From Clavibacter sepedonicus (GTDB taxonomy: Bacteria > Actinomycetota > Actinomycetes > Actinomycetales > Microbacteriaceae): DNA of 64,000 bases. Position numbers and translations under genes: made by a program. The stretch lies in contig NC_010407.1 of assembly GCF_000069225.1 (NCBI RefSeq), positions 2,294,001-2,358,000 of the forward strand. The letters run 5' to 3'. Of this stretch, positions 25,437 to 42,694 are shown piece by piece; position 1 is the stretch's first letter; each line of letters opens with the position of its first letter. Below the pieces are notes generated by a model, which worked only from the letters and a program-made list of their open reading frames with translations, was not told where the DNA came from and ran no database searches.

Positions 25437-26446
25437 TGGGGACGTCCGTCGAGACTATCGCCGTCCAAGGCGCCGTGGAGCTCGCGGTGCTCGAGCGCAG
25501 CGGCTTCGTGGAGTCGCGCCACATCGGCGCGGCCGTCGTGCTGTCGCCCGCGGGCGAGGTGCTGCGCGAGGTGGGCGACGCGACCACGCCCGTGTTCCCG
25601 CGCTCGAGCATGAAGCCGTTCCAGGCGCTCGCCGTGCTCGCGAGCGGCGCGGAGCTCACCGAGGAGGAGCACGTGCTGGCGACCGCCAGCCACGCCGCGA
25701 CCGCGCGTCACGTCGAGGTCGTGCGCGGGATCCTCGCGAAGGCCGGCCTCGACGAGTCCGCTCTCCGCTGCCCCGCCGACTGGCCGCTCGACCGGGCCGC
25801 GCGCGACGAGCTCGTGCGGGCCGGGATCCCCGCGTCGCCCGTCTACATGAACTGCTCCGGCAAGCACGCCGCGATGCTGCTCGCCTGCGTGACCAACGGC
25901 TGGTCGACCGACGACTACCTGCACCCGGACCACCCCCTGCAGGTGCGGATCCGCGACGTCGTCGAGCGCTTCACGGGCGAGCGGATCGCCACGACGGGCA
26001 TCGACGGGTGCGGCGCGCCCGTGCACGCGATGTCGCTGACGGCGCTCGCCCGCGGGATCCACCGCATCGCGACCTCCGCGCCCGGCTCGCCGTTCGCGCT
26101 GTACCGGCACGCGGCGGCGCTGACCGCGGCGGTGCGCGCCCATGGCTGGGCCATCGACGGCCCCGGCCGCGCGAACACCGTCGTGATCGAGCATCTCGGC
26201 CTGTTCGCCAAGGGCGGGGCCGAGGGGATCATGATCATGACCGCCCCCGACGGCACGACGGTGGCATCGAAGACGCTCGACGGCAGCCTCCGGGCATCCA
26301 CGATCGTGGCGCTGGAGCTGCTGGCCCAGGCCGGCGCGATCACGCGGGACGACGTGGAGCGCGTGCGCCCCGAGCTCGACCTCGCGGTGCTCGGCGGCGG
26401 CGTGCCTGTGGGCGAGATCCGGGTGTCCCCGGCGCTCATCGGCTGA
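25436..26446 (+). CDS. asparaginase (plant/rhizobial type II family)
   Basis: This 336-residue protein of the asparaginase II family (the thermolabile Rhizobium type, unrelated to E. coli AnsA/AnsB) would hydrolyse asparagine to aspartate and ammonia. Family blocks are VFPRSSMKPFQALAVL (about 54-70), CSGKHAAMLLAC (about 140-152) and GIDGCGAPVHAMSLTALARG (about 188-207). GRANTVVIEHLGLFAKGGAEG follows. The Ser-x-x-Lys in SSMK, the Cys-Ser-Gly-Lys and the GCGAP motif are complete. Coupled to gabT by a TGATG overlap, it suggests use of plant-derived asparagine and GABA as nitrogen sources. Its 3' end overlaps the convergent FtsK-like gene by 11 bp. Confidence 0.88.
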   Translation: MGTSVETIAVQGAVELAVLERSGFVESRHIGAAVVLSPAGEVLREVGDATTPVFPRSSMKPFQALAVLASGAELTEEEHVLATASHAATARHVEVVRGILAKAGLDESALRCPADWPLDRAARDELVRAGIPASPVYMNCSGKHAAMLLACVTNGWSTDDYLHPDHPLQVRIRDVVERFTGERIATTGIDGCGAPVHAMSLTALARGIHRIATSAPGSPFALYRHAAALTAAVRAHGWAIDGPGRANTVVIEHLGLFAKGGAEGIMIMTAPDGTTVASKTLDGSLRASTIVALELLAQAGAITRDDVERVRPELDLAVLGGGVPVGEIRVSPALIG

Positions 26447-29400
26447 CCCCGGCGGGCTGCACGGGGGCTGTTGCTGCTGCTGTCGCCGCCGCTTCCGCCT
26501 GCGCGGGGGCGACCGGCAGCCCGGGCATCACCGGGGGCCACGAGCAGCGGCGCACGTCGCCGTCCGGGGTGATGCGCCAGGCGCGGCCGGGGACCGGGGC
26601 GAGCGGCGGCGGCACCGCGCGGACGCGCAGGAGCGTGCGCGCGTCCCGCGGGGTGCAGCCCTCCATCACGACGTCGCCGATGCGGCGGAGATCCGCGAGG
26701 AGCGGAGCGCGCAGCAGCCAGGCGTCGGGATCCCCGACCACGACGCGGGGGCGCGCCGCGCGGCCGCCGTCCGGGTGCCCGCCGTGGCCGACCTCGGGTC
26801 GCGTCGCCGCGCCGTCTCCGGCCGCGCCGGGGAACGGCTGATCCGGGGACCAGCCCGGCGGGATCCGGGTGGCCTCGACGGCGTCGACGCCCATCTCCCG
26901 GAGGCGCGCGACCTGGACGACGGGCGACGGCGTGACGAGCGCGTGGACGGCACCGCCCGCGAGGACCGCGCGCGGCGCGGGATCCACGACGCCCGGACGG
27001 CTGGCCGCGCGTCCGCGCCGGGCGGACTCGGCTTCGGGCTCGGCCTCGACCTCGGGCGGCTGCGCGACCTGGATCCGCTCGCCGCGCCACTCCCCCGCAC
27101 CCGGCGTGGCACGGGCGTCGAAGAGGCGGCCGTCACCGCCCGCCAGCACGTGCTCCTGGCGGCTTGGGAGAGCGAGGATCACCGGCGGGCCCGCGGCGGC
27201 GGCCACGGCCTGGAGCGGCCCGCCCGCCCGACGTCCCGAGACGGCGAGCGCCACCCCGGCGTGCGGTCCCTCGCGGACGACCGCGGCCATCCCCTCGAGC
27301 AGGGCGGCCTGGTGCTCGGGATCGAGCCGGGAGACGGCGACGTCGAGGTCGTCGGCCAGCACGAGGAGCGGATCCCGGGCGCGGCGCGGGTCGCGGATGC
27401 GGGAGACGACGGCGGCGACCGCGTCCCAGCAGCCCTCCGCGTCCGCCGGCACGTGGACCACGTCGACGCCGGACGCGGCGGCGGACGCGGCGATGGTGCG
27501 CAGGCATGTGCTGCGGCCGGATCCCGGGCCGCCGATGACGAGCAGGTGGCCGTCCGTCGCCGGGCACCACTCGGCCGTCGCCCGGCGCTGCTCCGCGGGC
27601 AGGTCGACGAGGGCGAACGGGACGGCGGGCGCACCGACCCCGGGGGACGCGGATCCGTGCTTGGCGAGGGGCGGCACCGCGGCGAGGTCGGCGAGCGGGA
27701 CGCACGCGGGCAGCGGATCCAGCCACGGGCGCCGGACGGGGGCGGATGTCGCGCGGGCGGCGGCGATGCGGGCGAGGTCGTCCGCCGTCGTCACCCCCAC
27801 CTGGAACGGGCGCGTCGGCGCGCCGTGCGCCCCGACCAGGCACCGCCCGGCGGGCGCGTCGGAGAGGCGGGCCGCCTCGGCGGTGCCGAGGAGCGCCCGG
27901 CTGTCGGCCTCGTTGTTGACGCGGAGCGAGAGGCGGAGGTCGCAGTTGGCGAGCACCGCGTCGCGCACGACACCGGACGGGCGCTGGGTGCAGAGCACGA
28001 GGTGCATGCCGAGCGATCGGCCCCGTGCGGCGATGTCGGCGACGACCTCGTGCAGGCCGTCCTGATCGGCGAGGAGGGCAGCCAGCTCGTCGACGACGAT
28101 GACGAGGCGAGGCAGGACGCCCGCGGCGGCGGGGTCGTCGACGTCGCGGGCGCCGGCCTCGCGGAGGACGCGCTCGCGATGGCGGATCTCCGCGCGCAAG
28201 CTCTCGAGCGCGCGCCGCGCACCTTGCCCGTCGAGGTCGGTGACCAGGCCGACGGCGTGCGGGAGGACGAGCAGCGGGTCGAACGCCGCGCCGCCCTTGA
28301 AGTCGACGAGGAGCACGGTGACCTCCTCGGGCGGGTGCGCCGCGGCGAGCGCCGCCATCCACGTGACGAGGAGCTCGCTCTTGCCGCTGCCCGTGGTGCC
28401 GGCGACGACGGCGTGCGGGCCGTCCGCGACGAGGTCCACGGCCACGGGACCGGCGTGCCCGATACCGATGACGGCAGCCAGCGTGCGCGGTCGGCGGGTG
28501 GGCGCGACGCCGTCCCAGCCGGCGTCGGATCCGTCGCCCGCCGCGAGCCCGAGGGTCGACGTCCCCGGGGCTCCCGCGACCGGCAGCTCCGCGAACGGCA
28601 CACGCGAGGGCAGGGGCGCCCGCGCCGCCGCCAGGCCGCGCCGCCGCGCGAGGTCGGCGAGCTCGTCGGCGAGGCGCTCCACCTCCGTGAGGGACACGAG
28701 GTCGGGCCGCACGAGGCCCGTGCGGGTGACGCGCGGGGACGGGATCCCGACGCGGCCGCCGACGGGCGGGAGCACGTGGGACGGGGCTGTCGCCGTGGAC
28801 GGCAGGGCGTCGAGGGCGAGGAGGGCGTCCGGGGCGTCCGGCACGGTGTCGGCCGCGAGGATCCGCGCCGTTCCCGGGGTGCGCACGTCGAGCACCGTGC
28901 GGCACGCCGCCGGGAGCGACTCGACCCGCGGCGCCGCGGCGAGCACGACCTCCCGCGCGCCGAGCACGAGGCGGATCGCCGAGGCGCCCGGCTCCCCCGG
29001 CACCGCGCCCGGCACGACGCCCGGCGCGGCGGGGCGGTCCGCGCCGGTCCGCGCCTCGCGCAGCCCCTCCGCCGCGTGCGGGAGCCGCTCGAGCCAGTCC
29101 CACTCGGGCCCGGCCGGGCGCGACGCGATGCGGAGGTCGTCCGGCGGCAGGGCGTGCACGAGCTGGACGACGACGCCCCGGAGCACGGGCTCGACCAGGG
29201 CGGGAGCCCCGCGCAGCCCGAGGCCGCCGGCGGCGGGGACGAAGACGGGGGCGTCGGGGACCCAGCGGACGAGATCCGCCCACCGGGCAGGGTCGTGCGC
29301 GGCCGAGGACGCCACCGCTGCTCGGGCGTCGACCCGAGCCCGCCTGATGCGCCGCAGCGGGGAGCGGCCGGACAGGCGGGCCCGGAGCGTGCCGCCTCCG

Positions 29401-29921
29401 GAGCGCTCCTCGGCGTCGGGCACCCGCGCGTCCGGATCCCCGCGCCAGACCAGGCCGCTCGGCACCTCGCCCGTGCCGAGGGCGATGGGGAGCGTGCCGC
29501 CGTCGCCCGGATCCGCCCGCCAGAGGAGCGCGGGGTTCGCGCTGCCGTCGAGGATCTCGCGCGCGGACGGAGCCCGGGAGCGCAGGGCGGTGCGGGCGGC
29601 GGCGACGCGGGCCCGCACCTCGGCGTGCAGGCGCGCCAACGCGGCGCGGGACTCGCGTTCGACCCGGCGGGCCGAGCGGCGGCCGGAGATGCGCTGGTCC
29701 GCGACGCCCGCGACCGCTACCACGGGACCCAGCGCCGCGAACAGCAGCGCGTACGGGGAGCGCGTGACGGCCCAGACGGCGACGCTGACGACGAGGGGCG
29801 CCGCGACGCCGAGCACGGGGAACGGGGGCGGCGGGGCGGGTACGGGCGACGGGGGCGGGGAGATGTCCACCGGCCGAGGACACCACGAGCACGGCGACGC
29901 GGCGGGCGGGCGTCCGCGCAT
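26436..29921 (-). CDS. FtsK/SpoIIIE-domain ATPase, EccC-like
   Basis: This 1161-residue membrane-associated ATPase is of the FtsK/SpoIIIE/EccC class, which powers type VII secretion or DNA translocation. An N-terminal pair of hydrophobic helices (about 35-72) is followed by a linker. A first ATPase has Walker A VAGTTGSGKSELLVTW (about 505) and Walker B LVIVVDELAALL. A second ATPase begins near 797 with GGPGSGRSTCLR (the Walker Lys replaced by Arg) and LLVLADDLDVAV. This matches EccC-like proteins, in which only the first site is fully canonical. It lies at the 3' end of the operon. The ATG at 29921 is used; a GTG at 29870 is an alternative. No WXG100 gene lies nearby. Confidence 0.85.
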   Translation of the reverse strand: MRGRPPAASPCSWCPRPVDISPPPSPVPAPPPPFPVLGVAAPLVVSVAVWAVTRSPYALLFAALGPVVAVAGVADQRISGRRSARRVERESRAALARLHAEVRARVAAARTALRSRAPSAREILDGSANPALLWRADPGDGGTLPIALGTGEVPSGLVWRGDPDARVPDAEERSGGGTLRARLSGRSPLRRIRRARVDARAAVASSAAHDPARWADLVRWVPDAPVFVPAAGGLGLRGAPALVEPVLRGVVVQLVHALPPDDLRIASRPAGPEWDWLERLPHAAEGLREARTGADRPAAPGVVPGAVPGEPGASAIRLVLGAREVVLAAAPRVESLPAACRTVLDVRTPGTARILAADTVPDAPDALLALDALPSTATAPSHVLPPVGGRVGIPSPRVTRTGLVRPDLVSLTEVERLADELADLARRRGLAAARAPLPSRVPFAELPVAGAPGTSTLGLAAGDGSDAGWDGVAPTRRPRTLAAVIGIGHAGPVAVDLVADGPHAVVAGTTGSGKSELLVTWMAALAAAHPPEEVTVLLVDFKGGAAFDPLLVLPHAVGLVTDLDGQGARRALESLRAEIRHRERVLREAGARDVDDPAAAGVLPRLVIVVDELAALLADQDGLHEVVADIAARGRSLGMHLVLCTQRPSGVVRDAVLANCDLRLSLRVNNEADSRALLGTAEAARLSDAPAGRCLVGAHGAPTRPFQVGVTTADDLARIAAARATSAPVRRPWLDPLPACVPLADLAAVPPLAKHGSASPGVGAPAVPFALVDLPAEQRRATAEWCPATDGHLLVIGGPGSGRSTCLRTIAASAAASGVDVVHVPADAEGCWDAVAAVVSRIRDPRRARDPLLVLADDLDVAVSRLDPEHQAALLEGMAAVVREGPHAGVALAVSGRRAGGPLQAVAAAAGPPVILALPSRQEHVLAGGDGRLFDARATPGAGEWRGERIQVAQPPEVEAEPEAESARRGRAASRPGVVDPAPRAVLAGGAVHALVTPSPVVQVARLREMGVDAVEATRIPPGWSPDQPFPGAAGDGAATRPEVGHGGHPDGGRAARPRVVVGDPDAWLLRAPLLADLRRIGDVVMEGCTPRDARTLLRVRAVPPPLAPVPGRAWRITPDGDVRRCSWPPVMPGLPVAPAQAEAAATAAATAPVQPAGVSR

Positions 29922-29960: not shown

Positions 29961-32474
29961 TCAGGGACGCGGAGGACGCCGCACAGCAGGCCCGCCAGGA
30001 GCCCGCGAGCCCGCGCCGCCCGCCCGCCCGCCGCTCGCCCGCCGCAGCGACGCGAGCGACACCATCGCCCGGATCCGCTGCCGCCGGGAGCGGCCCGCGT
30101 CCATGCGCGCCGCCAGCTCGTCGACGCGGCGCCAGGCGGCGTCGGCGAGCGGATCCGGCACGTCGCCCGGCGCGAACGCCGACTCGTCGGCCATGTCCGC
30201 GAGCCCGCGCGCGCCGCCCACGCCCACGAGCCGCGCCACCTCGCGACGCGTGGCGGCGACGGCCGGCACGAGGCCGCGGTCGAGCGCGCCATCGCGGAAC
30301 TCGTCCCATGCTCCGCCGACCCGGTCGCGCGCCGCCGACGCCCTGCGCCGCCGACGCCGCCGGGAGACCTTGGCGCCCACCACTGCCAGGAAGGGCGACG
30401 CCGCGAGCCCGAGCCCGAGGAGCGACCAGCCGGCGACGCGCACGGCGGCGAGCACGGCCTGGAGCGCGGGATCCGCCTCGGGCCGGTCGTCGCGGCCCGT
30501 GTCCGGCGGCGTGCGGTCCTCGGGCTCGGCTTGCTCCTCGGCGGGCGGCGGCAGCACGGTCTGCGGACGGGCGACCTCGGTGGGCTCGTCGGGCAGGGCG
30601 TCGGGGACGTCGCGGACGGGCGGGTTCGGATCCACCGCGACCCAGCCGGACGACGCCGTGTCGACCTCGATCCACGCCGTGACGTCGGATCCGCGGACCG
30701 CGACCGGGCCGCCGTCGGCCTCGCGCACGGCCGCCTCGCCGGGCGCGAACCCCATCACGACGCGGACGGGGAAGCCGAGGTCGTCGGCCATGAGCGCGGC
30801 CGCGACCGCGTACTGCTCCGCGTCGCCCAGCATGGGGCGGGTGGTGAGGAGGTCGGCGATCCGCTCGGCCGAGTGCCCCGACCGGCTGAAGGGCGCGTCG
30901 CCGACGCCGTGGCTGACGTAGCCGTCGGCGCGGAGGGCGGAGATCGCGGCGACGAGCTGCGCCCCGGGCGAGGCGGAGGTGCCGGCGCCCGCGTCGGCGC
31001 CGCCCGCGGTCGCGCCGTCGGGGGCCGCGGTCGAGGCCTCGACGCGCGCGGCGACCTCGTCGGGCACGCTCGTGGGGCGCGGGGCCACGGCATCGCCCGG
31101 GCGCTCGTCCGCGAGCGCCTCGAGCGGCGGGGTGGACGCGACGACGGCCTCGATCTCGTACGCGTCGCCCGTGGTCAGCCCGCCGATGACGGCGCCGGTG
31201 GCGGTCGCGTCGTCGTAGTAGAAGGAGTCGGCGAGGCGCCCGCCGCCGTCACCCGCGAAGGCGATGCGCTCGAGGCGGCCCGCGCCCGGGAGCCACACGC
31301 CGCGGTAGGAGTCGATGACGACGTCGAGGGTCACGTCGTCGCCGGCGACGCCCGTCTGGTCGAGCCGGTAGGGCACGCGCGCGAAGGTGCCGGACGCCTG
31401 ACCCGTGCGCGACGCGTCGACGCTGCCGCGCGCGCCGCCCGTGCCGTAGACGACGCCGTCGTACGTGTCGAGCGCGGCGAGGCGCACCCGGCCGCCCGCG
31501 GGCAGGCCCGCGACGGTGAGCAGCGTGCCGTCCACCGCCGGGGTCTTCCAGTAGGTGCGGAAGGAGGAGAGCGGGCTGACCTGCTCGCGCGGGTCGAAGG
31601 GCTGCTCGACCGCGGATCGGAGGCCGGTGCGGGACGCGTCGGGCGGGGCGGCGCCCGTGGCGGCCACCCCGGCGACGAGCGCGACGGCGAGCACGACGGC
31701 CGCGGCCGCCCCGGCCCGCGTCCCCGAGCGGCGCCGGTCGGACGCGGACTCCGCGGGGATCCCCGACTGCCGGCCGAGGCGGCGCACGGCGCGGTGCCGA
31801 CGGCGCCAGCGGCAGCGCGCGATCCAGAGCAGGGCGGTCGCGAGCCAGGCCAGCGCGACGGGGACGAGGAGGCCGGAGACGTCCGGCGCATCCGGGCCCT
31901 GGCTGCGGTCGGGGCCGAGGGCGGCGGCGGCGAGGAGGATCACGAGGGACGGGATCACCGCGAGCTCCGGCCTCTGGGCGCGCAGCGCCACCGAGACGCC
32001 GATCACGGAGCCGAGCAGCACGAGCGCGAACGCGGGCACGAGGAGCGCCTGGTAGTCGCCGACGGGGAGCGCGATGGTCAGCAGCCGGACGACGCCGAGC
32101 GACGCGCCCTCGACGAGCTCGCCGAGTCCCGCGAGCGTGGGCCGCCAGCCGTCGACCGCCCCGGTGGGCACCGCGAGCGGCACGCCGAGCGCGAGGAAGG
32201 CGACGAGGACCGCGCCCGCGACGACCGCGCTCCCCCAGCGGAACCGCGCGCCCGCGACCGCGACGAGCGCGCCGACGACCAGCGTGATCCCCGCCATCCG
32301 CACGAACGACGCATCGCGGTAGACGGGCCAGAAGGCCGCGGCGGCGAGGCCGGTGAGGAGCGCGATCGCGAGGACGGGGACGAGCGTGCGGCCCGGGTCG
32401 CGGGATCCGGCCGGGACGCGGGGGCGGCCCGCGTCGCGACCGGGAGCCGCGCGGCGGGAACCCGCGGCGCTCAC
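29961..32474 (-). CDS. TgpA-like membrane protein with degenerate transglutaminase domain
   Basis: This 837-residue protein starts with about six membrane helices (first 230 residues). A large extracytoplasmic region (about 260-690) follows, then a further membrane helix (about 700-725) and a basic, Ala-rich cytoplasmic tail. The extracytoplasmic region contains the transglutaminase-like fold (MLGDAEQYAVAAALMADDLG, about 546-565, then VRVVMGFAPGE, SDVTAWIEVDTASSGWVAVD). In active relatives the first segment reads with Cys where Ala stands (GDAEQYA), and the His before AW is Thr here, so catalysis is unlikely. The GTG at 32474 overlaps the DUF58 stop (GTGA). It is likely a structural partner of the MoxR/DUF58 pair. 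Confidence 0.85.
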   Translation of the reverse strand: MSAAGSRRAAPGRDAGRPRVPAGSRDPGRTLVPVLAIALLTGLAAAAFWPVYRDASFVRMAGITLVVGALVAVAGARFRWGSAVVAGAVLVAFLALGVPLAVPTGAVDGWRPTLAGLGELVEGASLGVVRLLTIALPVGDYQALLVPAFALVLLGSVIGVSVALRAQRPELAVIPSLVILLAAAALGPDRSQGPDAPDVSGLLVPVALAWLATALLWIARCRWRRRHRAVRRLGRQSGIPAESASDRRRSGTRAGAAAAVVLAVALVAGVAATGAAPPDASRTGLRSAVEQPFDPREQVSPLSSFRTYWKTPAVDGTLLTVAGLPAGGRVRLAALDTYDGVVYGTGGARGSVDASRTGQASGTFARVPYRLDQTGVAGDDVTLDVVIDSYRGVWLPGAGRLERIAFAGDGGGRLADSFYYDDATATGAVIGGLTTGDAYEIEAVVASTPPLEALADERPGDAVAPRPTSVPDEVAARVEASTAAPDGATAGGADAGAGTSASPGAQLVAAISALRADGYVSHGVGDAPFSRSGHSAERIADLLTTRPMLGDAEQYAVAAALMADDLGFPVRVVMGFAPGEAAVREADGGPVAVRGSDVTAWIEVDTASSGWVAVDPNPPVRDVPDALPDEPTEVARPQTVLPPPAEEQAEPEDRTPPDTGRDDRPEADPALQAVLAAVRVAGWSLLGLGLAASPFLAVVGAKVSRRRRRRRASAARDRVGGAWDEFRDGALDRGLVPAVAATRREVARLVGVGGARGLADMADESAFAPGDVPDPLADAAWRRVDELAARMDAGRSRRQRIRAMVSLASLRRASGGRAGGAGSRAPGGPAVRRPPRP

Positions 32475-34048
32475 GACGCGCTCCGCTGGAGGGCGCCGCG
32501 GAGGTCGTCGAGGTAGCCGATCGTGAGGACGGAGAGGTCGCCGAGGCGGCGGAGTCCCGGCTCGACCTCGGGGTCGCAGACCACCGCGACCACCTGCACG
32601 CCGGGCGGGAAGCCGACGGCGGCCGAGCGGATCGCGGCGGGTGCGGCCCCGGTGCCGCAGACGAGGAACACGACGGACACGCCCGCGACCTCGTCGGACG
32701 CGGCCCGGGCGAGCTCCACGAGCGACGCCGCCCGGTCGGATGCGGTGATCTCGGCGAGGTCGTCGAGGAGGCGGTCGCGCGTGACGGTGGCGAGGCGGCG
32801 GAGGCGGGCGGAGCGGGATCCGGGCGGGCCGGAGCGGGCCACGGTGCGGGCGAGGCCGGGCAGCGTCGGCACGGTCGGGAGGCGGCGCACGCGCCGTGCC
32901 GTGCGGTCGGCGCTCGCGACGACCTGGAGGGTGCGCGCGTCGACGATGGCGCGCGCCCCCAGGGATCCGACGACGCTCACGGCCAGCTCGAACTCGGCGT
33001 CGGCGGTGGATCCGGCGAGCGCGCCCGCCGCGTGCCCGGCCGCGACCGTGGTACCGCCCGCGGGGATCGCCCCGGCGCCGCCCGCCGGCGCGCCCGCCTC
33101 CGCGACGGCCGCCTCCCCGTCCCCGTAGTCCCCCGCGTGCAGCGACAGCGCGACCATGATGTGGCTCCGCCGAATCTCCTCGAACCGCCGCACCATGTGC
33201 ACGCCGGTCTTCGCGGTAGAGCGCCAGTGGATGTGCCGCACCGGGTCGCCCGGCACGTACTCGCGGAGCGACTGGAAGGACACGTCGCTGTCGGTGAGGT
33301 CGCGTGTGGCGCGGCCCTCGAGGTCGCGGACGAAGCCCGTGCTCGTGCTGGGCATCGCGAGCGTGCGCGGGTGCACGAGCAGCCGGGTCGCGGCGGCCTC
33401 GGCGGACTCGCGGCGCACCAGGCCGATCGGGTCGCCCCGGACGATGCGCGCGGGGCCGAGCGCGATCACGCCGCGGCGCGAGGTGGGCACCACGAACACG
33501 TCCTCGTGGGTGTGGCCGTGCGCGAGGGACGGCACGTGGACCTCGGCGAGACCGGATCCGACCGGCACCTCCACCGTGAGCCCGACGGCCCGGCGGCGCA
33601 GCGGGTTCCGGACGGCGACGGTCGCGGGCGCGCGCTCCCCCGCCACCACGCGGTCGCGCGGGAGGCGCAGCGACACCTCGACGCCGGACGACCCGACGAG
33701 GTGGAGAAGCGCGATGAGCCAGAGGGCGCCGGCGGTCCACCCGACCGCGACGAGCTCGCGCCAGCCCAGCGCGTAGCCGGCCGCGCCCGCGAGGACGGCG
33801 CCCAGCGCGACGACGCGGCCGAGCGGCGTGACGACCGCGACCAGGCGCGCGAGCGCGTGGCGCGGCCGGGCGACGGCAGGGGCGGGGCCGGCAGCACCGG
33901 CAGCAGCGGCAGCGGCGGCAGCACCGGCAGCACCGGCAGCACCGGCGACGGCAGGGGCGGCGCCGGGCTCGGGAGCGGGCGCGACGGCGCGCGCGACGGC
34001 GGCGGGATCCGCGGCGTCGGCGCCGCCGCGCGTCCCGACCGCGCTCAT
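32471..34048 (-). CDS. DUF58 family protein
   Basis: This 525-residue protein with a DUF58 (von Willebrand A-like) domain is the standard partner of MoxR ATPases. After an Ala/Pro-rich N-terminus (about 15-60, encoded by a GGCAGCACC-type repeat) come two membrane helices (about 75-120) and a beta-rich extracellular or periplasmic stretch. The DUF58 core is DLEGRATRDLTDSDVSFQSL then REYVPGDPVRHIHWRSTAK (about 290), followed by the MIDAS-like region HIMVALSLHAGD. The ATG at 34048 overlaps the moxR stop and its own stop overlaps the next gene, so expression is translationally coupled. Its exact role is unknown; it may assemble or act on the neighbouring envelope proteins. Confidence 0.88.
   Translation of the reverse strand: MSAVGTRGGADAADPAAVARAVAPAPEPGAAPAVAGAAGAAGAAAAAAAAGAAGPAPAVARPRHALARLVAVVTPLGRVVALGAVLAGAAGYALGWRELVAVGWTAGALWLIALLHLVGSSGVEVSLRLPRDRVVAGERAPATVAVRNPLRRRAVGLTVEVPVGSGLAEVHVPSLAHGHTHEDVFVVPTSRRGVIALGPARIVRGDPIGLVRRESAEAAATRLLVHPRTLAMPSTSTGFVRDLEGRATRDLTDSDVSFQSLREYVPGDPVRHIHWRSTAKTGVHMVRRFEEIRRSHIMVALSLHAGDYGDGEAAVAEAGAPAGGAGAIPAGGTTVAAGHAAGALAGSTADAEFELAVSVVGSLGARAIVDARTLQVVASADRTARRVRRLPTVPTLPGLARTVARSGPPGSRSARLRRLATVTRDRLLDDLAEITASDRAASLVELARAASDEVAGVSVVFLVCGTGAAPAAIRSAAVGFPPGVQVVAVVCDPEVEPGLRRLGDLSVLTIGYLDDLRGALQRSAS
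33880..33960. repeat. low-complexity CCGGCAGCA-type repeat within the DUF58 gene
   Basis: A run of imperfect 9-base units (CCGGCAGCA and variants) encodes the Ala/Gly-rich N-terminus of the DUF58 protein. It is likely to vary in copy number between strains. Confidence 0.6.
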
Positions 34049-35115: not shown

Positions 35116-38100
35116 TCATCCGCGGTGGGCGTACGTGTACAGGGTGCCCGAGTTCGCGGTGACCCGCACCTCCAGGATCCGCTCGCCGCCCGCGGGGACC
35201 GCGCACGACCCGGCCGCGCCCGAGGACGCGTCGGTCCACGCGCCCTGGCCGCCGCAGCGCCACTCGCTGCGCGCGTACCCGCTGCCGTCGCCGACGCGCG
35301 CGCCGCGACCCGCGGCCGGCGGCATCGAGGTCCACGAGAAGGCCGTGACGCCGGCGTCGTCGGTCGCCGAGCGCACGTCGCCCGCGCGCGCGTCGACGGC
35401 GGTGCCGGCGGAGACCGGATCCGACCAGCCGCTCGAGCGCTGGCGCCCGTCGCCCGAGTCCTCCACGACGCGCACCTGGATCGTCGCGCCGACGCCCGTG
35501 CGCGGCAGCGTGAGCGCCTGGCCCACGCCGATGGGGACGCCGTCGCCCTGCCCGTCGACCCGGTACAGCAGCAGCGCCGACGCGGACGGGTCGCCCGGCC
35601 GGTAGCGGGCGTCGGCGAGGACCGCGCGGAAGACGCCGTCGCTCCCGCGGTCCGGGCTCGGCAGGTCGACCGTGACGACGGGCGTCGACGGCGCCGTGCG
35701 CGGGATCAGCTGGCCGGCCTCGACGACCGTGCAGCCCTGGCTGTTGGCGGCGAGCACCGCGAAGGCGACCGGCTGATCCGTGGCGAGGCCCGTGAACACG
35801 TGGCTGGTCGCGCCGCCGACGTCGACCGCGGGTCCGTGCTCGGCCGACCACGGCGAGACGCCCTCGGTGGGCACGGAGCAGCCGGGCGCGGAGCCGGGGG
35901 CGTACGCGGCGACGAGGTAGCGGATCCCGTCGACGCCCTGGCCCTGGAACGCGGGCCAGGACACAGTGACGCGCGTCTCGTCGGCCGGGTCGGCCACGGC
36001 GCCGGGCACGCCCGTCGCGGTCGGAGCGCCGCGCGGCGTGCCGGTCGCGGTGGCGGCGAGCCACGCGGATGCGTCCTGCACCTGGGCGCTGTTGCGCGCG
36101 GCCACCGCGACGGCGACGGGCACCTCGGCGACGAGCGACGGATCCCGCACCTCGACGCTCGTGGCGTCGGCCGCGACCTGCCGGGTGATGCCGCCCACCC
36201 CCACGACGTACTGCGTGACGGGGCTCGACGACGACGGCACCGCCGACGGCTGCCACGAGACGCGGAGCCCGTCGACGAGCGGCTCGATCGCGAGGCCGGC
36301 GGGGGCGGCCGGGAGCACGTCCGACCACAGGCCCGAGATCGACACCGGGTCCGAGGTGCCGACCCCGTTGATCGCCACCACCTCCACCTGCACCGAGGCC
36401 GCGGGGCCGTTGCCGGGCGTCGGCACGGTGCACGTCGTCGACGGGCAGACGACGGCCGCGGTCGCGGTGCCGCCGCGGAGGACGCGCACCTGGTAGCCCG
36501 TGATGGCGGATCCGTTGAAGGCGCCCGGCTCGAACGCGACCGTGAGCGACCGGTCCGCGAAGCCGGACGCGCGGAGGGCCGAGACGGGCCCCGGGCGGTC
36601 CTGCACGTGGATCACGACGGTGCCGAACGCGGCCCGCCCCGCGTCGCCCGTCGCGTCGCGCACCTCGTACTGCACGCGCACGTCGCCGGGCTCGGCGTCG
36701 GCGGACGCGTTGACGGCGAGGGTGGCGCGGTCGGCCGACGGCGTCACCGTCACTCCGGCAGGGAGGCTCGCGCCGTCGGCGCCGCGGATGGAGGCGACCG
36801 TGAGCGGCGTGCCCGGGAACGGGTTGCCCGCCTGGTCGTTGGCGAGCACGTCGATGGACGTGGAGGATCCGCGGGTCACCTCGCCCTCGTCGGTCGCGGG
36901 CTCGGCGAGCGGGCGCGTCGACGGCACCACGCGGAGGTCCACGCGGCCCGCCCGCCCGGTCTGCGTGGCGTCGCGGACGCTCACCGGGAACGACGCGGCC
37001 TGTCCCGTCGCCGCGGCCTCGTCGGCCGAGATGCGGAGCGTGCCGCCGTCGACCGACGCGCGGAAGCCGGCGGCGACGGCCCCCTCCAGCGCGAAGGCGA
37101 GCTGCCCGCGGTCGTCCTGGTACGGGTAGGTGGTGAGGCGGCCGAGGTCGACGTCCTTGGACTGCCCGGGCTCCAGGTCGATGACCGCGCCCGTGAACAC
37201 GGGCGGCTGGTTCTCGGTGGGCGTGACCGTGATGGGGAGCACGAGCGCGGCCGTGCGCCCGCCGTCGGCGCCGGATCCGGATCCGTCGGTCACCGTGAAC
37301 GAGATCGCCGCCGGCCCGAAGTACCCCGGCTCGCTCCGGTACGCGACGGTGTCCTCGTCCACGAGCTCCACGGGTCCGTCGGCGTGCGTCGCCTGGGGCG
37401 AGTTCGGGTCGGCGATGCGCACGGCCCGGCCGCCCGCGGCGACCACCTGCTGGTCGAGCTCGACCACGAGCCGCTCGCCGCTCGCCACGGTCGGGCGCGG
37501 CACGCCCACGCGCAGCTGCGGCAGCGTGTCCTCGAAGCCGGGCACCCAGACGAAGGCCGTCGCCGAGATCGAGGGGTCGTCCGGCTGCGCCACCGTGAAC
37601 GGGACGATCCGGCGCTCGTCGCCGACCTCGACGCGGATCCGCCCGTCGGCCGTCACGCGCGCCACGTCCTCGTAGCCCGCGCCGACCGCGAGCACGAGCG
37701 ACGACGCGTCGCCCTCCGCGGAGAAGACGCTGCGCATCACGTCCACGTCGACGCTCGACCGGTCGAGCACGTCGGAGAGCTGCAGCACCGTGTCGCGCGC
37801 GATGGGCCGGGTGGGCGGCGCGGCGGGATCCACGATCACGGTGAGGAACGCCTCGTCGCTCCCGCCGCGCGCGTTGCGCACGCCGTAGACGAAGCCGTAG
37901 CGCCCGGCCTGCTCGGGCGCGACGACGCGGACGGTGTCGCCGTCGAGGCCCGCGACGAGCCCCTCGGCCTGCGGCTGCACCGACACGAGCTCGAGCGCGC
38001 CGCCGTCGGGATCCGTGTCGTTCGCGAGCACCTGCACGCGCAGCACGCGGCCGGGCCGCACGGTCACGGTGTCGGCGGTCGCGACGGGGTTCCTGGCGCC

Positions 38101-41100
38101 CTCGACGCGCGTGCTGATGCCCACGCGGATCGTGCCGGTCGCCCGGGCGCCGAGCCCGTCGACCACGGCGTACGCGAACGCGTCGGTGCCGGTGGAGTAG
38201 TCGCCCGCCTGGTAGTCGATCCAGTCCGGCCCGACCTCGATGACCTGCCCCTTCTCCGGCCCGCTGTCCTGCCCGAGCAGCCGCACGGAGTCGCCGTCGG
38301 GGTCGATGCCGGTGAGCGGCACCGGGATCCGCACGGTCTCCCCCGCGAGCACGCGCGCCGTGAGCGGGCGCGGCACGGGCGCCGCGTTGGTCGCGACGTC
38401 GGCCTCGCGCACGGACACGGTGAGGGTCGCGGTCGCCCACTGCCCGTCGGGCGCGACCGCGCGGTAGACGGCCGTGTAGTCGCCCGTGCGGTCGGGCGCG
38501 AGGTAGCGGAGGCGGTCCTCGCTCGCGAAGAGGAGGCCGGCGCCCTCGGGCAGCGGATCCACGAGCACGGGGTCGAGGCGCAGCGCGTCGCCGTCGGGCT
38601 GCTCGTCGTTGGCGAGCACCGGGATGTCCACGGCGTCGCCCACGCGCACGGCGACGCGGTCGTCGGTCGCGACGGGCGGCTGGCGGACGGCCGGCTCGGG
38701 CACCTCGATCACGGTGATCACGCCGGTCGCCTCGGCCACGCCGTTGCTCACGCGGTACGCGACGTCCACGGGTCCGTCGAGCGGCCGCGTCAGGCTGATC
38801 CGCACGAGCCGCTGCCCGACGACCTCCGCGCGCACGCCCACGGCGTCGTCGGGCGATGTCGCGTCGGTGATCACGAGCACGCCGCCCGCGGGGTCGAAGT
38901 CGGCCTGGAGCACGTCCACGTCCTGCGCCTGGAGCGCGCGCACGAACACGGTGTGCGGCACGGTCACGGGCCGTCCGTCGGACTCGACGGCCCCGCGCAC
39001 CTCGACGCGCACGACGCCCGTGGCCGTGGTCCGCCCGTCGGTCACCGTGTACTCGAGCAGGTGCGTGCCGGCCTGGCCGCCCTGCAGGCGGAAGGTGCCG
39101 GCCTCGAGGTCGGGCGTGATCTGCACGCCGGCCCGCGCGGGGACGGCCGCCAGCCGGATCGCGCCGCTCCCGCCGCGCGCGTGCGTCAGCGGCTCCACCG
39201 TGATCTCGCGCCCGAGCGACGCCTGCACGACGAAGCCCTCGGCCACGAGCGGCACGTCCCCTTCGCGGCGCACGGTGACGACCAGCTCCCCGGATCCCTC
39301 CTCGCGCCCGTCGGACACCTGCAGCGCGACCGTGCGCGTGTCGCCGCCGGCCCCCGCGTCCGTGTAGACGACGCGCCCCTCGGGCTTCCAGCTGACGGCG
39401 TCGGGCGCGGCGACGCTCGCGCGCGTGAGGTACACGGGATCCCCGTCGGGGTCGTACCACCCGCCCAGCACGTCGGTCTGCAGCCGGTCGCCCTCGGCCA
39501 CGGATCCGGTCGCCGGCCGCACCTGCACGGGCGGCGCGTTCTCGTCGGGCGCGCGCACGGCGACCCGCACGTCCGCCGTCGCCGTGCCTCCGCGCCCGTC
39601 GCTCACGACGTACGAGAACCGCACCGTGCCGGACGCGCGCGCGGCGAGCGCGAGCTGGAGGCCCTGGCCGTCGTCCACGACGTCGACCGCGCCGACCTCG
39701 GCGTCCACGGGTGTGACGGAGTCGATCACGAGCACGTCGCCGTTCGGGTCGTGGTCGTTGAGCAGCACGGGCAGCGCGGTGGTGCGGCCGGGCCGCGCCC
39801 CGAGGTCGTCGTCGACCGCGACGGGCGGCTGCTGCACGCGGTCGGTCTCGGGCGGGGTGTCCGCGGTGTTCTGCTCGACGACGGTGTCGGAGCGGTCGCG
39901 GTCGATGAGGTCCGACCAGTTGTCGATGCGGCCCGCGTCGCGCTGCACGGCCCAGGCGGTGCCGCCGCGCGTGTCGTTGAGCACGACGCGCGCGCCGTCG
40001 ACGACGAAGCGCAGGGACGCCTGCTGCGGCATGGATCCGAGGTCGCCGGTCGCGCCCGCCGCCGTGCGCCGCGCGTCCTGGTCGACCTCGCCCGCACCCG
40101 GGAGCACGGCGGGGGCCAGGCACCGCTGCCAGCCGGATCCGTCGGTCCAGCCCGCGTACTCGCAGCCGGCCACGCGGACGGGGCGCGCGGGCTCGCCGCG
40201 CGCGTCGCCGGAGACGACGACCGGCTCGCCGCCCGCGACGGGCACGTCGACGAGTCCGCCCGAGTGCGCGACGAGCACGCCGCTCCCGTCCGAGGAGGCG
40301 CGCTGGAGGGCGACGCGCGCGTCCGCGGCCACGGATCCGGCGAGGTCGACCGTGCGCCCGTCGACGAGGAGGGCGCGCGCGTCGGCGTCGTAGAGCGCCC
40401 AGTGGTCGCCGACGGAGGCGAGCGCGAGCCGCTGCCCGGCGGGTCGGCCGGAATCCCCCGCCTGGACGGTCTCGCCCGCGAGCGCGGCCGCGGGGTCGGC
40501 GAGGGCGTCGGCCGCCTCGTCCACGGGCGCGCCGACGGGCCCGACGTCCACGGTCTCGCTCACCGTGTCCTCGGTGGCGGCCTGGATACGCGACAGCGCG
40601 CCCGTCGCGGCCGAGTACACGAGGAGCGTCCCGTCGTCGCCCATCGACGCGACGGCGTCGGTCCCGAGGAGGAGCGCGGGCGCGCTCGCGGCGTCGAACG
40701 CGGAGAGGCCCGCCACCGGCACGAGCCACAGCTGGCCGGTCGCCGGCACGAGGATCGCGGCGCGGGATCCCGCGAGCATGACCTCGGCGCCCGCGGGCAG
40801 CGGCGCCGTGTCGACCACCGCGCTCGTCGCGTCGTCGACCACGTCGAGGCGCGAACTGCCGCGGTCGGCGAGCAGCACGGTGGATCCGGCCTGCAGCACG
40901 TCGATGTCCTCGCTGCGGGAGTCGACGACGCTGTCGAGCTCGAGCACGGACGTGTTGGCGCGGCCGATGGCCTGCTGCGCCGAGTTGACGACCCACACGG
41001 ATCCGTCGTCGAGGTCGACCCGCTGCGCCTGGTAGCCGTCCGACACGAGCGCGAAGCCCGTGAGGAGGGCGAGCACGACGGCCCCGCCGGTGACGGTCGT

Positions 41101-41139
41101 CGCGGCCTGGCGGTGGCGGCGGATCCACTCGCGGATCAT
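35116..41139 (-). CDS. giant membrane-anchored Ig-like/fibronectin III repeat protein
   Basis: This 2007-residue protein starts with a short basic cytoplasmic tail and one membrane helix (TTVTGGAVVLALLTGFALV, about 15-35), so the rest is outside. Residues about 40-400 look like a beta-propeller-type domain. From about 435 to 1510 there are tandem Ig/cadherin-like domains, each ending near NDxDPDGD (LLNDHDPNGD, LANDTDPDGG and others), motifs that bind Ca2+ in relatives. From about 1513 come at least three fibronectin III domains (PGPVSALRASGFADR, APAGLAIEPLVDGLRVSW, ETRVTVSWPAF). A Cys pair lies in the last 50 residues. No LPxTG or second membrane helix is seen. ATG 41139 overlaps the kinase stop. 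It may be a surface adhesin or the scaffold of the operon product. Confidence 0.88.
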   Translation of the reverse strand: MIREWIRRHRQAATTVTGGAVVLALLTGFALVSDGYQAQRVDLDDGSVWVVNSAQQAIGRANTSVLELDSVVDSRSEDIDVLQAGSTVLLADRGSSRLDVVDDATSAVVDTAPLPAGAEVMLAGSRAAILVPATGQLWLVPVAGLSAFDAASAPALLLGTDAVASMGDDGTLLVYSAATGALSRIQAATEDTVSETVDVGPVGAPVDEAADALADPAAALAGETVQAGDSGRPAGQRLALASVGDHWALYDADARALLVDGRTVDLAGSVAADARVALQRASSDGSGVLVAHSGGLVDVPVAGGEPVVVSGDARGEPARPVRVAGCEYAGWTDGSGWQRCLAPAVLPGAGEVDQDARRTAAGATGDLGSMPQQASLRFVVDGARVVLNDTRGGTAWAVQRDAGRIDNWSDLIDRDRSDTVVEQNTADTPPETDRVQQPPVAVDDDLGARPGRTTALPVLLNDHDPNGDVLVIDSVTPVDAEVGAVDVVDDGQGLQLALAARASGTVRFSYVVSDGRGGTATADVRVAVRAPDENAPPVQVRPATGSVAEGDRLQTDVLGGWYDPDGDPVYLTRASVAAPDAVSWKPEGRVVYTDAGAGGDTRTVALQVSDGREEGSGELVVTVRREGDVPLVAEGFVVQASLGREITVEPLTHARGGSGAIRLAAVPARAGVQITPDLEAGTFRLQGGQAGTHLLEYTVTDGRTTATGVVRVEVRGAVESDGRPVTVPHTVFVRALQAQDVDVLQADFDPAGGVLVITDATSPDDAVGVRAEVVGQRLVRISLTRPLDGPVDVAYRVSNGVAEATGVITVIEVPEPAVRQPPVATDDRVAVRVGDAVDIPVLANDEQPDGDALRLDPVLVDPLPEGAGLLFASEDRLRYLAPDRTGDYTAVYRAVAPDGQWATATLTVSVREADVATNAAPVPRPLTARVLAGETVRIPVPLTGIDPDGDSVRLLGQDSGPEKGQVIEVGPDWIDYQAGDYSTGTDAFAYAVVDGLGARATGTIRVGISTRVEGARNPVATADTVTVRPGRVLRVQVLANDTDPDGGALELVSVQPQAEGLVAGLDGDTVRVVAPEQAGRYGFVYGVRNARGGSDEAFLTVIVDPAAPPTRPIARDTVLQLSDVLDRSSVDVDVMRSVFSAEGDASSLVLAVGAGYEDVARVTADGRIRVEVGDERRIVPFTVAQPDDPSISATAFVWVPGFEDTLPQLRVGVPRPTVASGERLVVELDQQVVAAGGRAVRIADPNSPQATHADGPVELVDEDTVAYRSEPGYFGPAAISFTVTDGSGSGADGGRTAALVLPITVTPTENQPPVFTGAVIDLEPGQSKDVDLGRLTTYPYQDDRGQLAFALEGAVAAGFRASVDGGTLRISADEAAATGQAASFPVSVRDATQTGRAGRVDLRVVPSTRPLAEPATDEGEVTRGSSTSIDVLANDQAGNPFPGTPLTVASIRGADGASLPAGVTVTPSADRATLAVNASADAEPGDVRVQYEVRDATGDAGRAAFGTVVIHVQDRPGPVSALRASGFADRSLTVAFEPGAFNGSAITGYQVRVLRGGTATAAVVCPSTTCTVPTPGNGPAASVQVEVVAINGVGTSDPVSISGLWSDVLPAAPAGLAIEPLVDGLRVSWQPSAVPSSSSPVTQYVVGVGGITRQVAADATSVEVRDPSLVAEVPVAVAVAARNSAQVQDASAWLAATATGTPRGAPTATGVPGAVADPADETRVTVSWPAFQGQGVDGIRYLVAAYAPGSAPGCSVPTEGVSPWSAEHGPAVDVGGATSHVFTGLATDQPVAFAVLAANSQGCTVVEAGQLIPRTAPSTPVVTVDLPSPDRGSDGVFRAVLADARYRPGDPSASALLLYRVDGQGDGVPIGVGQALTLPRTGVGATIQVRVVEDSGDGRQRSSGWSDPVSAGTAVDARAGDVRSATDDAGVTAFSWTSMPPAAGRGARVGDGSGYARSEWRCGGQGAWTDASSGAAGSCAVPAGGERILEVRVTANSGTLYTYAHRG

Positions 41140-42694
41140 CGCGGCAGCTCCGCGCACTTCTCGGTCGACGCGTCCCCGGCGACGCCGTCGCGCGTGACGG
41201 TGACGCGGATGCAGGCGCGCTCGCCCGCGGCGCCGCCCGCCCCGCCGGCGCCGGCCGTCACGCGGAAGGTCGTGTCGCGCTGCGTGCTCGGCAGGCCGCC
41301 GTCGCGGACCACCTGGTAGGCGTCGTCGGCGCCGAGACCGGGGTCGCTCCAGGAGAACAGCACGCCGTCGGCCGCCGCGGACGCCCGGATCTCGTCCACC
41401 ACCGGGATGTCGCGCGCCGCGGTGCCGGTGCCCGACCCGCCGAGCAGCATGCCGACGATCACGCTCGCGACGACCGCGCCGGCCGCCGCCGCCGCGATCG
41501 CGACGCGGTGCCTGCCGAGGAACGCGCGCCGGCCGGCGGCCGCGGGCCGCACGGGGGCGGACAGGCCGACGGGCCCGGATCCCGACCGGCCGAGGGAGGT
41601 GGACGCGGATCCCGCGCGCACCGGGTCGGAGGCGGTCGCCGGGACGCCGGGACGAGCAGCCCCGGCCCCGGCCGTCGCGCGCGCGGACGCGGGTGCCGCC
41701 TTCCGCCTCGCCCGCCGGACGCCGCCCGCGCCGCCCGACCCGGTCGTCCCCGGATCCACCTGCACGATGCCGCGCACGCGCGTCGGGTCGTCGTCCTCGT
41801 CGACGCCGGCCGCCACGGCCGACGCCCACTCCTCGCTCGCGACCTCGAGCGGCGTCTGCGCGAGCCGCAGCTCCGCCTCCACCGCCTGCAGCTCGCGGAC
41901 GAACGCGAGCGCCGACTCCGGCCGCGCCGACGGCTGCCGGGACATCGCGCGGCGCAGCACCAGCTCGAGCCGCTCGGGCACGTCGTCGCGCCCGGTCGGC
42001 AGGGGCCTGGCCCTCTGGATCCTCGCGACGAGGTCGGCGGGCGCGTTCTGCCCGCCCGGCACCTCGAACGGGCTGCGGCCAGCGAGTACACGGTCGCCGC
42101 GAGCGACCACACCTCGCTCCGCACGGTGCCGGGGCTCTCGTCGGCGAGCACCTCGGGCGCCGACCACGGGATCGAGAGGCCCACCGCGTCGGTCGCGGCC
42201 GCGTCCTCGAGCGTCGAGGCGATGCCGAAGTCGCTGAGCACGGGATGCCCGAACGCGGTCGTGAGGATGTTCGCCGGCTTGATGTCACGGTGCAGCACGC
42301 CCGCGCGGTGGGCGGTCTCCACGGCGCTCGCGATGCGGATCCCCACGCGCAGCACCTCCGCGACGCCCAGCGGCTCGCGCCGGTACCGGTCGCTGAGGCT
42401 CGACGAGCACAGCTCCATCACGAGGTACGGGCGGCCGTCGGCGGCGACGGATGCCTGGTGCACGGTGAGCACGGACGGGTGGGCGCTGAGCTGCGCCATG
42501 AGGTCGGCCTCGGCGCGGAACATGGCGCGGAGGCGCTCGGTCACGATCTCCGCGAGCATCACCTTCACGGCGACCTGGCGGCGCGGCATGTCCTGCTCGT
42601 AGAGGAACACGTCGGCGAAGCCCCCGGAACCGAGGACCGTCACGTACGTGAACCCCGGCAGCACCGGCGGGGAGGACGGCAGGCGTCTGGCCAT
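41136..42694 (-). pseudogene. membrane Ser/Thr protein kinase (PknB-like), frameshifted
   Basis: The first frame (MARRLPSSPPVLPGFTYV, ATP loop GSGGFADVFLY, VAVKVML, catalytic VLHRDIKPANIL, DFG in LSDFGIAS, SIPWSAPEVLAD) is a normal Hanks-type kinase to about residue 205. The expected SLLAGRSPFEVPGG then appears in another frame: after AATVYSL the reading shifts near 42077-42085. The sequence is consistent with loss of 7 bases from a CTG/GGCC-rich stretch. The second frame contains the C-lobe (GRDDVPERLELVLRRAMSRQ), a membrane helix (VAIAAAAAGAVVASVIVGML) and an extracellular Fn3-like domain to CAELPR. As written the kinase loses its C-lobe. It is the first gene of the operon that follows. Confidence 0.85.

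What the first reader, a model, noticed from the sequence alone, without database searches (positions are those of the whole stretch)
26436..42694. Candidate novel system: kinase, giant Ig/Fn3 protein, MoxR, DUF58, TgpA-like and EccC-like ATPase in one operon
Six genes on one strand are joined by ATGA or GTGA overlaps or short gaps (the longest 60 bp). MoxR with DUF58 and transglutaminase-fold protein is a known trio; adding an EccC-like secretion ATPase, a membrane kinase and a 2007-residue external Ig-like protein suggests a machine that assembles or exports surface protein, a type VII-like system without the usual WXG100 substrate or EccB/D/E parts nearby. The coupling implies fixed stoichiometry. 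I do not know of a described function for the whole set.
Basis: partly seen in the sequence, partly recalled or inferred. Interest (0 to 1): 0.85.

Follow-up and report, generated by a model that had tools for sequence, protein, structure and literature searches.

The report
Actinobacterial kinase-giant-protein type VII-like operon
A six-gene operon in a plant-associated bacterium matches a gene cluster that gut-microbiome papers describe as a bifidobacterial immune sensor, and here it also carries a motor protein of the type VII secretion family, which suggests an envelope-spanning machine found in many actinobacteria.

Summary
The six minus-strand genes are real, but the kinase frame is broken in this assembly; that region is open in 9 of 9 other Clavibacter genomes checked. 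Five genes match, in kind and order, the PFNA cluster described for Bifidobacterium. Kinase, giant Ig protein and EssC-type ATPase match the published subtype T7SSd in kind. Two searches for papers joining the two found none. All 22 strong MoxR hits in other genomes of the order were examined: 21 loci, from 12 families, carry the five core genes on one strand, against the printed claim that PFNA occurs only in bifidobacteria. The ATPase lies in 11 of 22. In six of the ten whose ATPase is of the window's clade, WXG100-like genes lie beside it; none were found in the ten complete loci without it. The 'transglutaminase' lacks its catalytic cysteine in 22 of 22 aligned sequences and 120 of 120 listed homologues: a conserved pseudoenzyme. 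Best reading: a kinase-regulated, T7SSd-like envelope machine with MoxR, DUF58 and pseudo-TgpA as parts; Clavibacter has a reduced form. Against: half the core loci lack the ATPase, and bifidobacteria are reported to have T7SS clusters only rarely. Secretion is untested.

The parts
41459..42694 (-). Ser/Thr kinase, catalytic half (frame is good from 42694 down to about 42.1 kb; the rest of this frame is out of frame); counterpart in kind of T7SSd TsdD and PFNA Pkb2
   Evidence: Pkinase 4.8e-33; HRD, DFG and lysine motifs seen in the translation; frame broken here, open across this place in 9 of 9 other Clavibacter genomes
41136..42167 (-). Ser/Thr kinase, C-terminal half in another frame: rest of the kinase domain, a hydrophobic stretch and a Fn3-like end (last two by reading, no Pfam hit)
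   Evidence: Matches the C-terminal half of the open frame in relatives; no Pfam family alone; stop overlaps the start of the Ig gene
35116..41139 (-). 2007-aa giant envelope protein: N-terminal helix, propeller-like domain, Big_9 Ig domains (five stretches), C-terminal region where relatives score as Fn3; PFNA FN3 counterpart, TsdI-like
   Evidence: Big_9 1.1e-69; full-length colinear relatives, PF00041 in many; AF2 model of residues 1-450 with propellers as best PDB matches
34045..35055 (-). MoxR AAA+ ATPase
   Evidence: AAA_3 3.7e-62, AAA_lid_2 1.1e-24; PDB 2r44 3.9e-71
32471..34048 (-). DUF58 protein
   Evidence: DUF58 5.7e-8; coordinates
29961..32474 (-). TgpA-like polytopic protein with a transglutaminase fold that lacks the catalytic Cys and His (pseudoenzyme)
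   Evidence: Transglut_core; 6g49 alignment; Cys absent 22/22 and 120/120; fold match 6g49
26436..29921 (-). EssC/EccC-type ATPase, reduced form: intact D1, shortened D2 with degenerate Walker A, no FHA domain and no third ATPase domain found; TsdC-like
   Evidence: TIGR03928/TIGR03924 hits; 4nh0, YukB, EccC5 as nearest PDB chains; D1 motifs invariant in 108 of 108 sequences, the window's own included; domain comparison; tree

Best explanation
The operon encodes a kinase-regulated, envelope-spanning machine of the T7SSd kind, built on the module that the Bifidobacterium literature calls PFNA. Proposed working: the EssC-type ATPase is the membrane motor; the giant propeller/Ig/Fn3 protein, anchored by one N-terminal helix, forms the external stalk or conduit; the transmembrane kinase (with PP2C and FHA proteins in most relatives) switches assembly by phosphorylation; MoxR and DUF58, with the catalytically dead TgpA-like protein as a membrane scaffold, assemble or remodel the complex. 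A WXG100 protein is the likely substrate or co-factor: beside the ATPase in several relatives, encoded elsewhere in Clavibacter (beside groEL in the two genomes looked at). Shown here: homology, order, linkage, loss of the TgpA cysteine, the domain make-up of the ATPase. Inferred: that the parts form one complex, that it exports anything, and that the WXG100 is its client. The window's version is reduced (no FHA and no third ATPase domain on the ATPase, no local phosphatase or FHA gene) and its kinase frame is broken in this assembly.
For: Core five genes on one strand in 21 of 22 loci from 12 families. ATPase in the same locus and strand in 11 of 22; 10 of these 11 plus the window fall on one side of the tree (support 98), apart from EccC and from other EssC-type paralogues. 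WXG100-like genes beside the ATPase in G019, G020, G021, G023, G035, G041, with the Pfam cut-off reached in G021, G035, G041, none in the ten complete loci without ATPase (Fisher p 0.011). Among 13 genomes of the genus a WXG100 of E about 1e-19 is in 13, the operon ATPase in 12, EccC in 2, the same two that hold a second WXG100: in ten of the other eleven the operon ATPase is the only EccC/EssC-type match. T7SSd as published has WXG100, FHA-ATPase, kinase and giant Ig protein. RDD plus FHA proteins lie in the PFNA loci G017 and G019 and in the ESX-like locus (FHA below the cut-off in the last).
Against: Ten of 21 complete core loci have no such ATPase in the stretch fetched (up to 20 kb either side), so the core may work without it. 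In Bifidobacterium, PFNA is reported in all gut-dwelling autochthonous human species (abstract passage), while a WXG100 cluster was reported as unique to one strand and shared with B. dentium (passage); the two do not go together there. The window's ATPase lacks the third ATPase domain that docks WXG100 in EccC (docking recalled, not from a call) and has a degenerate second one. No WXG100 lies in the window's operon. WXG100 scores in G019, G020 and G023 are below the Pfam cut-off, and the home-made profile contained some of the sequences it then found. In G013, G015, G016 and G018 the EssC-type ATPase that accompanies the WXG100 is of other clades, so co-occurrence there does not speak for this operon. 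Homology of the giant protein to TsdI was not tested. G050, with the strongest WXG100 neighbours, carries an ATPase of another clade. In G034 the kinase call is weak (53 bits, no HRD or DFG motif).
Confidence: 0.43

Rival explanations
1. A surface-protein assembly operon: MoxR, DUF58 and the dead TgpA mature and anchor the giant Ig/Fn3 protein, which serves as adhesin or wall stalk; the kinase regulates it; the ATPase is an accessory that joined in some lineages and exports nothing of its own.
For: Core five without ATPase in 10 of 21 complete loci; reduced ATPase in Microbacteriaceae; PFNA without a T7SS cluster in most bifidobacteria, as the papers read; adhesion reported for the bifidobacterial FN3 protein (PMC6803598, passage).
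Against: The ATPase clade is found with the operon in eight families; D1 Walker motifs are invariant in 108 of 108 sequences; WXG100-like genes lie beside it.
Confidence: 0.36
2. A host-signal sensor: as proposed for Bifidobacterium, the kinase and the FN3 protein sense host cytokines and signal inward.
For: TNF-alpha binding by a FN3 fragment and phosphorylation of MoxR by Pkb2 are reported for B. longum (PMC8430577, PMC10688814; passages).
Against: The giant protein and TgpA have full-length relatives in many named Microbacteriaceae, mostly soil and plant genera by recall, and the operon is in 12 families of the order, so cytokine sensing is unlikely to be the ancestral role.
Confidence: 0.08
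3. Spare parts of an ordinary ESX (T7SSa) system whose other genes lie elsewhere in the genome.
For: A separate locus with EccC, EccD, WXG100-like genes and a nuclease-ended candidate effector is present in this genome.
Against: That locus has its own EccC, found in 2 of 13 genomes of the genus, while the operon ATPase is in 12 of 13; the tree separates the two ATPases.
Confidence: 0.03
4. An anti-phage or conflict system of the MoxR-vWA kind.
For: MoxR scores above the cut-off of the bpMoxR model (46 against 27 bits), and the giant protein starts with a propeller-like domain.
Against: PADLOC gives only generic kinase and FtsK/HerA-type matches and nothing for the other four genes; the operon ATPase is in 12 of 13 genomes of the genus rather than patchy.
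Confidence: 0.04

Closest known systems
PFNA cluster of Bifidobacterium (pkb2, fn3, aaa-atp, duf58, tgm, in some species prpC, a hypothetical gene and fha; PMC8430577, PMC6803598, PMC10688814, all seen as passages)
   Same: Same five kinds of gene in the same order; MoxR-type ATPase; giant protein of similar size (1994 aa reported in PMC10688814, 2007 aa here); PP2C and FHA-type neighbours in most relatives outside Clavibacter.
   Different: The window has an EssC-type ATPase as sixth gene and no phosphatase or FHA gene. The word FtsK does not occur in the PFNA papers checked. [quoted passage not shown] here the cysteine is missing throughout.
T7SSd (TsdA, TsdC, TsdD, TsdH, TsdI; Garrett, Higginson and Palmer 2024, PMC11217815)
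   Same: EssC-type ATPase, membrane Ser/Thr kinase, giant Ig-like envelope protein; FHA domain on the ATPase and WXG100-like genes in relatives.
   Different: MoxR, DUF58, transglutaminase and fibronectin are not mentioned there. [quoted passage not shown] TsdH was not looked for.
Type VII/WXG100 cluster of Bifidobacterium choerinum AGR2158 and B. dentium Bd1 (PMC4965825, passage)
   Same: A WXG100 cluster in the genus where PFNA was described.
   Different: Described as a separate 15-gene cluster found in few bifidobacteria; its genes are in a supplementary figure that I could not see, so whether it contains PFNA genes is unknown.
MoxR-DUF58-transglutaminase (MRP) operons
   Same: Gene trio and order.
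   Different: The transglutaminase-fold protein is a conserved pseudoenzyme, and the trio is embedded with kinase, giant protein and ATPase.
T7SSa / ESX
   Same: Membrane FtsK/SpoIIIE-type ATPase.
   Different: No Ecc part but the ATPase was recognised in the operon; the ATPase groups apart from EccC.

Membership tests
[quoted passage not shown]
   Order in the window; the kinase frame is broken here but open across that place in 9 of 9 other Clavibacter genomes
PFNA cluster | Restriction to Bifidobacterium (claimed in PMC10688814) | tested here: not met
   21 of 22 loci from 12 families of the order carry the core; this is a claim about distribution, not about kind
PFNA cluster | Sequence homology to the bifidobacterial proteins themselves | tested here: inconclusive
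T7SSd | EssC-type membrane ATPase (TsdC) | tested here: met
   TIGR03928 best in NCBIfam, below the equivalog cut-off; EccC and YukB chains nearest in the PDB
T7SSd | N-terminal FHA domain on the ATPase | tested here: not met
   No FHA hit in the window's protein; present in the two relatives scanned, G017 and G019
T7SSd | WXG100 protein (TsdA) in the cluster | tested here: not met
   None in the window; two elsewhere in the genome; beside the ATPase in several relatives
T7SSd | Transmembrane Ser/Thr kinase (TsdD) | tested here: met
   Pkinase hit; membrane part by reading, in the other frame
T7SSd | Giant Ig-like envelope protein (TsdI) | tested here: met
   Big_9 repeats; homology to Olsenella TsdI itself not tested
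T7SSd | Single-helix protein TsdH | not tested
   No profile or sequence in hand
T7SSa (ESX) | EccB, EccD, EccE with EccC | tested here: not met
   No such family among the six genes; EccD and an EccC lie in another locus; EccB and EccE were not searched genome-wide
TgpA transglutaminase / cysteine protease | Catalytic Cys and His | tested here: not met
   Ala and Thr in the window; Cys absent in 22 of 22 loci sequences and 120 of 120 listed homologues, the window's own counted in both

The most novel reading that the evidence does not exclude
The PFNA operon and T7SSd are two views of one phospho-regulated secretion machine that is widespread in Actinomycetales. MoxR, DUF58 and a catalytically dead TgpA are unrecognised core parts of it, the ATPase may carry its ubiquitin-like partner fused at its N-terminus, and the cytokine binding reported for the bifidobacterial protein is a late use of an export apparatus whose motor was lost or moved in most bifidobacteria. 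Clavibacter and its family carry a reduced version that works with an unlinked WXG100.
Probability: 0.32. Interest if true: 0.8.

Novelty: new variant of a known kind. Interest (0 to 1): 0.6.

Why it matters
It joins two literatures that, in the texts I could search, do not refer to each other: a 'species-specific immune-sensing operon' of bifidobacteria and a computed type VII subtype. If right, the work on cytokine binding and on Tgm as a cysteine protease needs re-reading, and a regulated envelope machine becomes testable in easily grown, harmless actinobacteria. It makes a sharp prediction: secretion of a WXG100 protein should need a MoxR and a dead transglutaminase.

Tried and rejected
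Rejected: chance grouping; ordinary ESX parts; active transglutaminase; defence system. Tried without result: a fused ubiquitin-like (YukD) domain at the ATPase N-terminus of relatives. Profile comparison with two EccD N-termini gave a probability of 1%; Pfam gave one weak YukD hit (E 0.015) among four N-termini scanned. Kept as a lead only. Linkage of the WXG100 of the genus to the ATPase: they are far apart, so only co-occurrence supports a link. A reading of the window ATPase as domains D1+D3 was dropped after one search showed the second domain to be a shortened D2.

Limits: the survey took all 22 MoxR hits with E of 3.7e-104 or better outside G000, from 19 of the other 38 genomes; weaker MoxR hits were not examined, so the count of genomes with PFNA is a lower bound. 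One locus (G031) shows only MoxR, PP2C and FHA-type genes. Protein lists are the best 120 of 270, 730 and 244.
Full report
What is there. The window lies in G000:C2:2294001-2358000 of a 3.4-Mb genome. The named relatives of the ATPase found in genome contigs are all Clavibacter (5 loci), as are the nearest named proteins. Six genes run on the minus strand from 42694 to 26436. Downstream, on the other strand, lie a class III aminotransferase and an asparaginase-like gene; upstream a citrate synthase. These three names come from reading the translations, not from a family search.

Kinase. The catalytic half and the membrane half are in different frames. In nine other Clavibacter genomes fetched for the purpose (a tenth region did not exist) the frame is open across this place. 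In eight it ends at the usual stop; in the ninth (L028) it shifts further on and runs into the Ig frame. I cannot tell a mutation from an assembly error.

Giant protein. The listed relatives are colinear: outside Clavibacter mostly 45-52% identical over 90-100% of the length, at about 1860-2000 aa. That is much conservation for an adhesin. An AlphaFold2 model of residues 1-450 (mean pLDDT 78, pTM 0.74) has an N-terminal helix and a series of beta sheets. The best PDB matches are propellers, first an archaeal surface-layer YVTN propeller with PKD domain (E 3.1e-9, TM 0.38 by query), then BamB. TM-scores are below 0.5 by query, so the fold class is likely but the blade count is open.

TgpA-like protein. 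The P. aeruginosa TgpA domain (6g49) is its only PDB relative by sequence at E up to 1 (E 0.0012) and its best by fold (E 6.6e-8; model pLDDT 73, pTM 0.48). The position aligned with the catalytic cysteine is Ala in the window. Of 22 sequences (window and 21 loci) none has Cys there; of 120 listed homologues, the window's own included, none has (A 92, Q 18, E 4, D 3, G 3); His is kept in 3 of 120 and Asp in 118 of 120. Among the loci, His is kept in some (for example G017, G036, G042, G050). Which residues are catalytic rests on the alignment with 6g49 and on recall. [quoted passage not shown]

ATPase. Best NCBIfam models are EssC (239.9 bits) and EccCa (216.3), below the equivalog cut-offs. 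In 108 sequences (P0001-P0108, the first the window's own) the D1 Walker A Gly-Lys-Ser and Walker B Asp-Glu are invariant; the second P-loop has Lys in 27. In relatives outside the family the orthologue is about 1470-1550 aa where complete, with three P-loop domains and, in the two scanned, an FHA domain. The window's form has no FHA hit, a shortened second domain with a degenerate Walker A, and no third.

Other type VII genes in this genome. PF06013 finds two WXG100 genes. One is at C2:2901410, next to groEL and a sensor kinase by reading. The other, at C2:1122372, is in an ESX-like locus with a three-domain EccC, EccD (5.3e-21; YukD 6.6e-14), an RDD protein with a sub-threshold FHA hit, a second small helical protein, DUF6177 and a protein ending in a non-specific endonuclease domain. 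Over 13 genomes of the genus: a WXG100 of E about 1e-19 in 13 of 13, a second in 2 of 13; operon ATPase in 12 of 13 (missing in G002, which has 620 contigs; split into pieces in G003, G004, G007, G008), EccC in 2 of 13, the same two. Whether the first WXG100 is beside groEL was seen in G000 and G004 only. Of seven genomes of other families, six have a WXG100 and an EssC-type ATPase and one (G014) has no WXG100 and only a match at the level of cell-division FtsK; but in G013, G015, G016 and G018 that ATPase is of other clades.

Survey. MoxR of the operon was searched in 39 genomes of the order. I examined all 22 hits with E of 3.7e-104 or better outside G000, from 19 genomes. Home-made profiles (built from the window, G017, G019 and a few others, so those two loci match by construction) found all five core genes on one strand within about 12-18 kb in 21 of 22. 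These come from 12 families by tool label, the window's own included. In G034 the kinase call is weak (53 bits; no HRD or DFG), in G032 the HRD pattern is missing; the other 19 have HRD and DFG. PP2C lies in 20 of the 21, FHA or RDD-FHA profile hits likewise in 20 (G034 has neither). The ATPase is in the same locus and strand in 11 of 22. G032 and G049 have kinase, Ig, MoxR, DUF58, TgpA, PP2C, then an RDD/FHA hit, which is the published bifidobacterial order; I infer that their family is Bifidobacteriaceae but no call names it. [quoted passage not shown] these loci, and the named Microbacteriaceae relatives, contradict it.

Tree. On 479 columns around D1 (32 sequences, IQ-TREE, ultrafast bootstrap) the long ATPases of PFNA loci form a clade (100), the short Microbacteriaceae forms another, and with EccC as root the two are sisters (98). 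Apart stand EccC and paralogues that lie beside whiB-like, sigma/anti-sigma-like or Tad-pilus-like genes (named by reading). The ATPase of G050 falls among the latter, so its WXG100 neighbours do not count for this clade.

WXG100 beside the ATPase. With a profile that included sequences of G020, G021, G035 and G050, small WXG100-like genes were found near the ATPase in G019, G020, G021, G023, G035, G041 (and G050), not in G017, G033a, G036 or the window; in G042 the contig ends within the ATPase. By PF06013 the cut-off of 27.3 bits is reached in G021 (56.6), G035 (32.2) and G041 (30.8 and 27.3) and missed in G019 (26), G023 (25.2) and G020 (21.5). Other small proteins there gave no PF06013 hit (one each in G023, G041 and G050). 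None of the ten complete PFNA loci without ATPase showed a match. Fisher 6/10 against 0/10 gives p 0.011; related genomes and the make-up of the profile weaken this.

Literature. T7SSd was read in PMC11217815 (outline, sections 5, 7 and 9, passages): five core parts, WXG100, FHA-ATPase, kinase, a single-helix protein and a giant Ig-like protein thought to span the envelope; MoxR, DUF58, transglutaminase and fibronectin do not occur. The abstract names Bifidobacterium among the hosts of T7SSd. PFNA papers were seen as passages; FtsK does not occur in the PFNA papers that one search counted. Searches for papers joining the two found none; searches gave none that I recognised in their listings, which for 45 and 86 were capped at 20 of 39 and 20 of 34. 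PMC4965825 reports a 15-gene type VII/WXG100 cluster in B. choerinum AGR2158, also in B. dentium, as the first in the genus (passage); fibronectin and MoxR do not occur in its text. PMC5720513 reports an Esx locus in Actinotignum (passages). PMC12067865 compares the mycobacterial moxR operon with PFNA (passages). The MoxR-vWA paper PMC7159879 was seen as passages.

Judgement. Membership in PFNA by gene content and order is met. Membership in T7SSd is not met for the window as it stands (no FHA, no linked WXG100), though relatives with the same operon come close. It works most likely like a T7SSd machine in a reduced form; that is inference, and the surface-assembly reading is nearly as likely.

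Noticed in passing
window 41136-42694: The kinase gene is split between two frames in this assembly, while the frame is open across this place in nine other Clavibacter genomes; mutation or assembly error is undecided.
   Followed up: partly
L004:1-12110 with L010 (G000:C2:1114400-1127109): Separate ESX-like locus with EccC, EccD, RDD protein, WXG100, DUF6177 and a candidate secreted protein ending in an Endonuclea_NS_2 domain; its EccC and WXG100 are in 2 of 13 Clavibacter genomes.
   Followed up: partly
L003:8384-8674 (G000:C2:2901410): Canonical WXG100 with no secretion gene beside it, next to groEL and a sensor kinase; a WXG100 of the same score is in 13 of 13 genomes of the genus, and groEL or sensor-kinase neighbours were read in several other families.
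   Followed up: partly
L020, L022, L024, L025, L027: Further EssC-type FtsK paralogues lie beside whiB-like, sigma/anti-sigma-like or Tad-pilus-like genes in other families: another uncharacterised neighbourhood.
   Followed up: no
L071:15313-15612 and 15963-16262; L061:18483-18752 and 19483-19752: Repeated copies of WXG100-like genes downstream of the ATPase in G020 and G023, identical in the part printed.
   Followed up: no
L050 (G033) 5511-7876: An aminotransferase and an asparaginase-like gene lie about 4 kb beyond the ATPase end of the operon, as directly beside it in the window, which suggests vertical inheritance in the family.
   Followed up: no
L050, L052, L054 (G033): One genome of the window's family carries three PFNA loci, only one of them with the ATPase.
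   Followed up: no
window 21326-22288 and 22499-23461: Two integrase-like ORFs of 320 aa on opposite strands; a near copy of the second lies at G000:C2:1110681-1111643, close to the ESX-like locus.
   Followed up: no
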